From the NCBI RefSeq assembly GCF_900104065.1, contig NZ_FNLC01000001.1, positions 372,001 through 436,000 of the forward strand: 64,000 nt of DNA, given 5' to 3'. Every line of letters starts with the position of its first letter. The first letter of the stretch is position 1. The translations under genes were made by a program, and so were the position numbers. This document shows, one piece after another, positions 40,913-55,735 of the stretch. The notes beneath the pieces are model-generated. The model worked only from the letters and a program-made list of their open reading frames with translations, had not been told where the DNA came from and made no database searches. Source of the DNA: Natronobacterium texcoconense. Lineage in GTDB: Archaea > Halobacteriota > Halobacteria > Halobacteriales > Natrialbaceae.

Positions 40913-40993
40913 TCGGCGGAGAGACCCGAAGCGTGGTCAGTAGTTTCCCGGGTCGTTCGGGTGATACAACGGAGCGACAGTACTGCGTGATCT

Positions 40994-41314
40994 GGCCGGG
41001 AGCGGACTCCGAGCGATGCGAGGAGTCCACGACCCGGGGAAGGGCAGGCCGTCACACCGTTATCGACCGCGAGCAGCCAGCGGCTGCGAGCGAAGCGAGG
41101 CGGCAAGACCGCCTCGGAACCGCGAACGGTAACACCGTGAGCGGGCCGACGACTGATGTGGAGGGCCGTTCGCGGCCCGGAACGGAGGGAGGAGTGCTTT
41201 TCATCAAAGCTGAGCGAGATCTTCGATCTCGCGAGGTCCAAAAGAGCGCTCCGCGCTCTTTTGAAGATTTTGCCGAGGGTGCGCCGTGAGGCGCACCCGC
41301 AGCGCAAAAGTTTG
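40994..41314. repeat. Hairpin-array repeat element, copy A
   Basis: Between convergent genes, ending against the TFS stop codon. It holds a series of perfect stems: 41004-41028, 41073-41087 (loop AGC), 41097-41115, 41126-41138 (loop AAC), 41163-41178 (loop TTCG), 41214-41232 (8 bp, loop TTC), 41239-41263 (11 bp, loop TCC) and 41277-41298 (9 bp, loop GTGA). The last is enclosed by TTTTGC/GCAAAA (41268-41273 with 41304-41309). Exact words are shared with the element at 54.1 kb, e.g. 15 bases at 41035-41049 and 18 bases at 41139-41156. Confidence 0.85.
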
Positions 41315-41623
41315 TTAGTTGTCGTCCTCGCGCCACTTGTGCTCGCACTCGGAGCAGATGAAGAAGCGGGTCTCGGATTCGTCGGCCGAGCGGATCTGTT
41401 GCATGTACCAGTAGGCGCGGTCGTGGCCACATTCGGGACAGTGGGCGTCGGTTTCGGGCAGCGACGTCTCTTCGGAGGATTCGATTATCTCGCTTGCTTC
41501 CTGGCTGTCCGTGACGACGTACTGGTCCGCGTCACCTTTCGGTTCCGTGTAGCCACAGCTACCGCACTCCCAGAGGCCGTCGTCGGCTTTCATCATCGAA
41601 CCGCATTCGTCGCAAAATTCCAT
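41315..41623 (-). CDS. tfs: Transcription factor S (TFIIS/RPB9-like)
   Basis: A 102-residue RNA polymerase cleavage-stimulating factor with two zinc ribbons. The N-terminal one has MEFCDECGSMM and LWECGSCGYTEP. The C-terminal one has HCPECGHDRAYWYMQQ and FFICSECEHKWRE. The loop RSADESE supplies the acidic pair (Asp-Glu) that catalyses RNA cleavage in backtracked complexes, so it is an active TFS. The true start is the ATG at 41623 in front of MEFC. Its stop codon abuts the hairpin element on the right-hand side. Confidence 0.95.
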   Translation of the reverse strand: MEFCDECGSMMKADDGLWECGSCGYTEPKGDADQYVVTDSQEASEIIESSEETSLPETDAHCPECGHDRAYWYMQQIRSADESETRFFICSECEHKWREDDN

Positions 41624-54128: not shown

Positions 54129-54325
54129 ACTCGGGGAAGGGCAGGCTGTCGCCCGATAACGACCGTGAGCGAAGCCGAAGGCTGAGCGAGCGGGCCGACG
54201 ACTGACTTGAAGTGAGTGAAACGAACGGAAAGGAAGGAGGAGGCTTTTTATCGAAATTTTACCGAGGGACGTTGCGAGCGAGACGATTTTGTCTCGCTCG
54301 CAACAGACCGCAGAGTAAAATTTCG
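54129..54325. repeat. Hairpin-array repeat element, copy B
   Basis: Related to the element at 41 kb. Shared exact words are 15 bases at 54132-54146 and 18 bases at 54188-54205. Its 3' part is a composite stem: an outer 11-bp pair CGAAATTTTAC/GTAAAATTTCG (54252-54262 with 54315-54325) enclosing a 14-bp stem (54271-54284 with 54291-54304, loop GATTTT). The outer stem matches copy A with a compensatory change (TTTTAC/GTAAAA here, TTTTGC/GCAAAA there). It ends against the stop codon of the geranylgeranyl reductase gene. Confidence 0.85.
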
Positions 54326-54328
54326 TTG

Positions 54329-55735
54329 TTAGTATTTCGGGTCGGCTCCGGTCGTCTCGTATACCGCGTCCATCAGTTCGTCGCGGCGTTCCTGCCAGGC
54401 CTCGAGACCATCGGGACTCGAGGGGTAGTTTTCGTAGTGCTCGAGCAGGTCGTCAGCACAGCGTTTCGTCTGGTAGAGGTTCCAGATAGTTCCCCAGTGG
54501 CCGCGGCTCTTGACGAGACTCTCGAGGGCGAGTTTCGGGCCGATACTGGTGCTGCCGGAGTACAGTGCCTCGGCGAGTTTGTCACCGGGCATCGCGGCGA
54601 GCAGTCCCATCAGGTCGTCGACGTCGACGGCAGTCGAGAGGATGTTGTAGACGTCGAGTGCGGCGTAGCGGGCACCGAAGTGGTCCATCACCAGTTCGTT
54701 GTACTCCCAGAACGTTTCTTCGCTGAAGTCGCCGGTCTCGAGTCCCTCGATGGCTCGTTCGGCGGCGTACTTGCCGGCGTAGGCAGCACCGGCGATGCCA
54801 CCGCCCGTGGTGGGGTTGACGTGGCCTGCGGCGTCACCGACGGCCATGTAGCCCGGGTGGACCGCCGAATCGTACGGTCGGCGGGTGGGCAGGGCAGCGC
54901 CGAGTTTGTCGTCGACCTCGGCGCCGTCGAACTCCGCGCGGTTCTCGAGGTCGTGTTTGAGGTCCTCGACGAGTTTCATCGGTTCCTCGGTCATCTGGAA
55001 GCCCAGACCGGCGTTGATCTCGGTTTCGGTCCGCGGGAAGTACCAGAGGTAGCCTGCGGCGCGTTCGGTGGGCTTGAACACGAGCGCGTCGGACCACTCG
55101 ACTGGGTCTTCGACGTGGACGATCTCGCGGTAGGCCGAACAGAAGTGGCTGTAGTCGACGTTGGTGTCGAACGTCGAGTCGGAGAAGTCGACCTCGTCCT
55201 GCAGCACCGACAGCGAACCGGCGGCGTCGATGACGACGTCGGCGTCGTAGCTAACTGGCTCGCCGGCGTTCATCCCTTCGACGCCGGTGACCCGTCCCGT
55301 CTCGTCCTGATTGACCGTCTGGACGACGGTGTCGTAGTGGAACTCGGCCCCTGCCTCGTCTGCGCCTTCGATGATGCGCTTGCCGTACTCCCAGCGGTCG
55401 ATGACGGCGAGTTCGCCGGGCACCGGAATCTCGAGGACGGTGTCTTCCTGTGGGATCTCGAACCGACCGTGGTCGACTTCGGTGTTGGTGATCGCGGGCT
55501 CGAGCTGGGACTTCGGAATCGCGTCCGGGAAGTCGCTGGCCCCCTTGAGCGCGTCGCCACAGGCGATGTGGCCCGCCTCCTCCTCGGACTTGCGCTCGAT
55601 CACGACGGCGTCGTACCCCTCGCGTGCGACGGTCGCTGCGGCGTAACATCCTGCCGTACCGGCACCGACGACGACGACGTCCGGTGAATGGGTCGTAGAC
55701 GTCGTGCCGGCGGCCGACTGCTCCTGCGTACTCAT
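54329..55735 (-). CDS. Geranylgeranyl reductase family protein
   Basis: A 468-residue flavoprotein reducing the isoprenoid chains of archaeal lipids or quinones. The FAD-binding start is VVVVGAGTAGCYAAATVAREGYDAVVIE (quoted in part). Later motifs are GLGFQMTEEPMKLVEDL and YMAVGDAAGHVNPTTGGGIAGA. The true start at 55735 (MSTQEQSAAG) is chosen because the frame upstream is unrelated. A 2Fe-2S ferredoxin gene starts on the other strand 112 bases away, a plausible electron source. Confidence 0.9.
   Translation of the reverse strand: MSTQEQSAAGTTSTTHSPDVVVVGAGTAGCYAAATVAREGYDAVVIERKSEEEAGHIACGDALKGASDFPDAIPKSQLEPAITNTEVDHGRFEIPQEDTVLEIPVPGELAVIDRWEYGKRIIEGADEAGAEFHYDTVVQTVNQDETGRVTGVEGMNAGEPVSYDADVVIDAAGSLSVLQDEVDFSDSTFDTNVDYSHFCSAYREIVHVEDPVEWSDALVFKPTERAAGYLWYFPRTETEINAGLGFQMTEEPMKLVEDLKHDLENRAEFDGAEVDDKLGAALPTRRPYDSAVHPGYMAVGDAAGHVNPTTGGGIAGAAYAGKYAAERAIEGLETGDFSEETFWEYNELVMDHFGARYAALDVYNILSTAVDVDDLMGLLAAMPGDKLAEALYSGSTSIGPKLALESLVKSRGHWGTIWNLYQTKRCADDLLEHYENYPSSPDGLEAWQERRDELMDAVYETTGADPKY

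What the first reader, a model, noticed from the sequence alone, without database searches (positions are those of the whole stretch)
54129..54325. Shared hairpin element with covarying stems against gene stop codons (copies A and B)
The elements at about 41.0-41.3 kb and 54.13-54.33 kb share exact 15- and 18-base words, the order of blocks and a final composite stem: a variable inner hairpin (9 bp in A, 14 bp in B) inside an outer stem. The outer stem differs between copies by a compensatory pair (TTTTGC/GCAAAA against TTTTAC/GTAAAA). Both copies lie between convergent genes and end directly at the stop codon of the minus-strand gene. That is too regular for chance. Possible roles are a two-way transcription end, an mRNA 3' stabiliser or a mobile repeat. 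Whether the family is already described I cannot say.
Basis: partly seen in the sequence, partly recalled or inferred. Interest (0 to 1): 0.68.

Follow-up and report, generated by a model that had tools for sequence, protein, structure and literature searches.

The report
Haloarchaeal gene-end hairpin cassette
Two look-alike hairpins in this salt-loving archaeon belong to a large, apparently undescribed family of folded DNA/RNA cassettes that sit within a few bases of the stop codons of many housekeeping genes across haloarchaea, probably marking and protecting the ends of their transcripts.

Summary
The two copies belong to a dispersed cassette family of the class Halobacteria. The own genome holds about 12 terminal hairpins. 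A covariance model finds it in 67 of 116 genomes and 31 of 45 genera, in at least seven families. The reversed control pattern is absent from all 61 genomes searched. The terminal stem pairs in 95% of cells, with double-sided changes at 10 of 21 pairs; slid versions reach at most 48%. At one locus, TFS in 23 Natrinema genomes, 249 of 253 cells are Watson-Crick.

In 103 of 143 copies the hairpin begins 0-6 nt after the stop codon of a minus-strand gene, facing one way. The same genes recur: TFS, thermosome, gyrB, uL16, aIF1A, PolD. Some copies follow SRP RNA. Convergence is not required: 60 convergent, 43 tandem. Abutting genes use TAA/TAG in 94 of 103 cases, against 46% elsewhere.

Best reading: a transcript 3'-end/boundary element with T4 on both strands, vertically retained, modules exchanged between copies. 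Termination is inferred, not shown. No described family was found (Rfam, papers searched).

The parts
40993..41049 (+). Copy A, distal block B1: GGCCGGGAG, hairpin GGACTCC/GGAGTCC, ending in the shared 15-mer CGGGGAAGGGCAGGC
   Evidence: Sequence; the 15-mer block is found upstream of 72/143 copies against 6 on the reverse strand
41139..41201 (+). Copy A, central block: 18-mer GAGCGGGCCGACGACTGA, small hairpin, purine-rich GGAACGGAGGGAGGAGTGCTTTT
   Evidence: Sequence; core motif upstream of 126/143 copies (36 on the reverse strand)
41205..41209 (+). Copy A, outer 5' arm CAAAG, paired with GTTTG at 41310-41314 across the inserted module
   Evidence: Sequence; pairing across the same kind of module is kept in TFS orthologues L410, L412, L420, L422, L433
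41210..41267 (+). Copy A, optional two-hairpin module inserted between the outer arm and TTTTGC
   Evidence: Present or absent among orthologous copies
41268..41314 (+). Copy A, terminal hairpin: TTTTGCCGAG - 9 bp inner hairpin - CGCAGCGCAAAA GTTTG
   Evidence: R1 hit 41245-41317, 53.8 bits, E=1.3e-10
41315..41623 (-). Transcription factor S (TFS); its TAA stop (41315-41317) abuts copy A
   Evidence: NCBIfam TIGR01384, 87 bits
54132..54249 (+). Copy B, distal and central blocks (15-mer 54132-54146, 18-mer 54188-54205, purine tract + T5 54227-54249)
   Evidence: Sequence
54252..54325 (+). Copy B, terminal hairpin: CGAAATTTTAC / GTAAAATTTCG outer stem with 14 bp inner hairpin 54271-54304
   Evidence: R1 hit 54234-54328, 50.9 bits, E=6.5e-10; fold z -6.6 (+), -9.8 (-)
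54329..55735 (-). Geranylgeranyl-reductase-family FAD protein; its TAA stop (54329-54331) lies 3 nt from copy B
   Evidence: TIGR02032, 235.7 bits over cut-off 158.8

Best explanation
The elements are members of one haloarchaeal family of modular, structured 3'-end cassettes. The invariant core is a hairpin set 0-6 nt beyond a stop codon: a covarying outer stem, T4 on both strands, a frequent mismatch just outside the T4/A4 tract, an asymmetric internal loop (CGAG facing GCAGM), and an inner hairpin whose sequence is free. In the Natrialbaceae copies examined it is usually extended by 100-300 nt of further hairpins and conserved single-stranded blocks. Most likely it acts as a transcript 3'-end and boundary element. 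The T4GC tract about 10 nt after the stop lets RNA polymerase stop or be released, the stem protects the 3' end and shields the gene from transcription coming from the other side, and the distal tract (GTGCTTTT...TTTT) does the same for opposing transcripts. Shown: position, orientation, pairing, covariation, conservation, spread. Inferred: termination, protection, shielding.
For: Hairpin abuts stop codons with fixed polarity in 103/143 copies. It also follows SRP RNA about 15 nt after its 3' end in G005 and G065, with degenerate versions by inspection in several others, so it marks transcript ends rather than translation. Neighbour orientation is only mildly skewed to convergence (60:43 against 241:322, p=0.005). 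T4 lies within 30 nt of the stop in 101/101 element genes against 72/535 others (partly by construction of the search pattern). In Haloferax volcanii a T stretch followed by C ends transcription in vivo and one hairpin ended 59% of transcripts (PMC7237163). Covariation. A minimal form, hairpin alone between two convergent stops, exists in L114 and L307. Recurrent housekeeping targets.
Against: No RNA data. T4 is shorter than the T5C described as strong. 20 of 143 copies lie before a + strand gene, some in divergent regions upstream of a conserved small + strand gene (L108, L169, L207), where no neighbouring gene ends. Wobbles lean to G-T rather than A-C on the + strand (11:3 in 125 genomes, p=0.06), which hints at a folded + strand, not the mRNA strand of the abutting gene. 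The 100-300 nt extension is unexplained by a plain terminator.
Confidence: 0.55

Rival explanations
1. A mobile repeat (REP/MITE-like) that inserts at stop codons and whose copies are homogenised by gene conversion; any effect on transcripts is secondary.
For: Dispersed, 1-27 copies per genome where present. TFS carries TGA in most genomes without the element and TAA/TAG with it (9/10 against 5/20 by hand count, p=0.001), and abutting genes overall are TAA/TAG-rich (94/103 against 246/530), as if the end of the element replaces part of the stop. Module types swap at one locus among Natrinema species.
Against: Same genes carry it across genera and families; orientation toward the gene is fixed; no terminal inverted repeats or target duplications were noticed in the copies read (not searched systematically); no hit in 2.9 million viral contigs and one in 72,556 plasmids; no linked transposase noticed, though not searched systematically. 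A gene-specific variant (CTAAA/TTTAG at thermosome) persists across genera.
Confidence: 0.2
2. A folded RNA transcribed from the + strand, running toward the stop codon: an antisense or independent small RNA whose 3' end overlaps the neighbouring gene's 3' end.
For: G-T over A-C bias on the + strand (11:3; 11 against 2 in the pair counts). Several conserved single-stranded purine blocks and multiple hairpins on that strand.
Against: Bias is weak and partly from the same data; not significant when all hairpins of the cassette are counted (23:15). In tandem arrangements it would need its own promoter and none was recognised by eye. No Rfam match in the window.
Confidence: 0.12
3. A DNA-level site (cruciform or protein-bound palindrome) for chromosome organisation or recombination at the ends of housekeeping genes.
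For: Almost no wobble intermediates in the outer stem, both strands fold about equally well, inner stem sequence is free while pairing is kept.
Against: Tight spacing to stop codons and SRP RNA 3' ends and the one-way polarity fit transcripts better; no conserved protein-binding arm sequence apart from T4.
Confidence: 0.1

Closest known systems
Haloferax volcanii transcription termination sites (T stretch + C; hairpin motif S12), PMC7237163
   Same: T stretch at intergenic 3' ends; some sites with an upstream hairpin
   Different: Those are described as motifs at single sites, not as a shared repeat family; here a conserved modular cassette, fixed 0-6 nt from the stop, T4 inside the stem arms and not after the hairpin
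Bacterial REP/BIME and similar intergenic palindromes (PMC3733652, PMC2817692)
   Same: Dispersed imperfect palindromes in intergenic regions
   Different: REPs are 20-40 bp, usually exceed 100 copies per genome and have associated transposases; this is 60-330 nt, up to about 27 copies, kept at orthologous genes class-wide with fixed orientation
MITEs (PMC10969869)
   Same: Non-coding, dispersed, structured
   Different: No terminal inverted repeat or target duplication noticed; no parent element identified
Bacterial intrinsic terminators
   Same: GC-rich hairpin at gene ends
   Different: No T run after the hairpin; T4 lies in the 5' arm in both directions

Membership tests
Rfam release 15 families | Match at or above gathering score | tested here: not met
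   No match in the window; in 15 element loci only the neighbouring SRP RNA and tRNA matched
Archaeal T-stretch terminator | T run shortly downstream of the gene | tested here: met
   T4 within 30 nt of the stop in 101/101 element genes against 72/535 others; T4 was required by the search pattern, but T4-T5 is also kept in most TFS orthologues found by protein search
Archaeal T-stretch terminator | RNA 3' ends map to the T run | not testable with these tools
Bacterial-type intrinsic terminator | Stable hairpin followed by a U tract | tested here: not met
   No T run follows the hairpin on either strand; T4 sits in the arms
REP/BIME | 20-40 bp palindrome in high copy | tested here: not met
   60-330 nt cassette, 1-27 copies per genome
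REP/BIME | Association with a RAYT transposase | not tested
   Not searched
MITE | Terminal inverted repeats and target-site duplication | tested here: inconclusive
   None noticed by eye at the ends of 24 copies or of the TFS copies; no systematic search and no clean empty site in a close relative was found

The most novel reading that the evidence does not exclude
A class-wide 3'-end system of haloarchaea: a swappable structured cassette, including the stop-codon-proximal arm, that defines transcript ends of a shared set of housekeeping genes and of SRP RNA, is recognised by a dedicated factor through its mismatch and asymmetric loop, and is kept in repair by gene conversion between copies.
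Probability: 0.25. Interest if true: 0.8.

Novelty: new variant of a known kind. Interest (0 to 1): 0.62.

Why it matters
Signals for transcript ends in archaea are poorly defined beyond T runs. This family gives a concrete, sequence-defined, genetically tractable 3'-end element present at named genes (TFS, thermosome, gyrB, uL16) in haloarchaea. It also offers a rare case where pairing is kept while arms and modules are replaced wholesale, at the same locus in many species, so mechanism and concerted evolution can both be tested.

Tried and rejected
Kink-turn: considered on the + strand, rejected by inspection because the needed A is A or C in the copies. Coding potential: ORFs crossing the elements run antisense into genes and the cassettes vary in length. 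Viral origin: no match. Two bacterial pattern hits, L290 and L323, have no inner hairpin and were set aside as chance. Strand choice from all hairpins of the cassette: 23 G-T against 15 A-C, not informative. Rfam with relaxed threshold on RNA-like flanks of L144, L310, L313: nothing. Literature searches found no description; only open-access papers are held, so this is not proof of novelty. An initial guess that the GEEQLIA gene is CetZ was wrong; it is ribosomal protein uL16.

Full report
What was checked. The window is 372001-436000 of contig 1 of a 4.0 Mb haloarchaeal genome. Named relatives place it in the Natrialbaceae: for example, a contig of same-genus genome G002 has the length of one of Halobiforma haloterrestris. 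Copy A abuts the stop codon of transcription factor S; copy B that of a geranylgeranyl-reductase-family protein. In copy A a 58-nt two-hairpin module splits the outer stem; allowing for it, a second compensatory difference between A and B is seen (CAAA/TTTG against CGAA/TTCG).

Copies and chance. A pattern for the terminal hairpin finds 9 exact copies in the own genome and copies in 44 of 61 family genomes; the same pattern read backwards finds none. A covariance model built from 60 copies gives 14 hits at E<=0.001 in the own genome; two of them are the same hairpins read on the other strand, so about 12 are distinct. It has hits in 67 of 116 genomes of the class, in at least seven families. 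Named hosts include Natrinema, Haloterrigena, Natronorubrum, Halopiger, Haloprofundus, Haloferax profundi and marinum, Halobacterium and Halomarina. The exact pattern has no match in 2.9 million viral contigs, and a distant search with copy B finds one of 72,556 plasmid records.

Structure. In 60 aligned copies 95.4% of cells pair; 10 of 21 pairs change on both sides; structures slid by 1-3 columns reach at most 48% and none of 500 shuffles matches the pairing or the covariation score. One outer pair occurs as GC 27, AT 20, TA 8 and CG 3. Between the outer arm and T4 lies a position that is most often a G-G mismatch. At the single TFS locus of 23 Natrinema genomes the 11-bp arm is Watson-Crick in 249 of 253 cells, the four others being C-C on the coding strand; even the T4 tract changes once with compensation (GTTT/AAAC), and pairing is kept across a 53-58 nt inserted module. 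Changes in the arms come as whole alleles (CGAAA..GC or CAACC..AC), which points to replacement between copies rather than stepwise mutation; this is inference.

Place. I took about 140 copies with 5 kb of context and called genes with a simple codon model. In 123 of 143 the gene on the GCAG side is on the minus strand, and in 103 its stop codon lies 5-11 nt from the A4 arm, that is 0-6 nt from the outer stem. The polarity is one-way; only L114 and L307 were seen with a stop codon close on the other side too, with the bare hairpin between two convergent genes. The opposite neighbour is convergent in 60 and tandem in 43, against 241 and 322 for other genes. Genes served include TFS, thermosome, gyrB, ribosomal protein uL16, aIF1A, PolD large subunit, TbsP, an acyl-CoA dehydrogenase, an AsnC-type domain protein, a small GTPase and MvaD (thermosome and gyrB named from their C-terminal sequences). 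In G065 the hairpin begins 15 nt after SRP RNA, in G005 likewise, with degenerate versions in some others.

Stop codons. Genes next to an element end in TAA 59, TAG 35, TGA 9; other genes nearby TGA 284, TAA 131, TAG 115 (p=8e-19; related genes are not independent). For TFS, genomes with the element have TAA/TAG and most of those without have TGA. Either the arm of the element supplies part of the stop, or strong stops are selected next to the hairpin; the data do not separate these.

How it may work. Position at transcript ends of both coding and non-coding genes, T4 on both strands, and a protected stem argue for a transcript 3'-end and boundary element. Haloferax terminates at T stretches ending in C and a tested hairpin terminated 59% (PMC7237163). 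Against a plain terminator: T4 is short, the extension is long, some copies lie upstream of + strand genes, and a weak excess of G-T over A-C on the + strand hints at a folded + strand. Termination has not been shown.

Known or new. There is no Rfam match and no description in the papers searched. It resembles REP-type palindromes and archaeal terminators but fails the size, copy number and hairpin-then-U-tract tests. I rate it a new variant of a known kind, gene-end structured repeats.

Noticed in passing
L108, L169, L207 (element to +50); own genome C5:52227-52298: In several genera the element sits in a divergent region 50 nt before a conserved + strand gene (MASFTVVVGDPDSG...), not at any gene's 3' end.
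   Followed up: partly
L141, L192, L194, L196, L208, L210: A subset of copies is followed by a shared block GGTTGGCACGTGTAGTGA... and, in several, TTCTGAATAAGAAACCGTG further on; perhaps another repeat family.
   Followed up: no
L144, L310, L313, right flank of the hairpin: A conserved flank (GGTCGATGTACGCCCGGAACAC...) shared by three genera with no Rfam match; looks like the end of an unrecognised RNA or small gene.
   Followed up: partly
window 41210-41267; L028, L029, L410, L422: A reusable two-hairpin module (CTGAGCGG...CGAGGTCC...GAAGA or ...CTCGAGA) inserted at exactly one point of the stem, in some orthologues and not others.
   Followed up: partly
inner hairpins of all copies: Loops of three bases are hypervariable, TTC and GAA being commonest, while stem types recur across genera.
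   Followed up: no
G000:C1 copies: All five full-scoring copies on the 1.46 Mb contig C1 of the own genome lie on the + strand; too few to judge.
   Followed up: no
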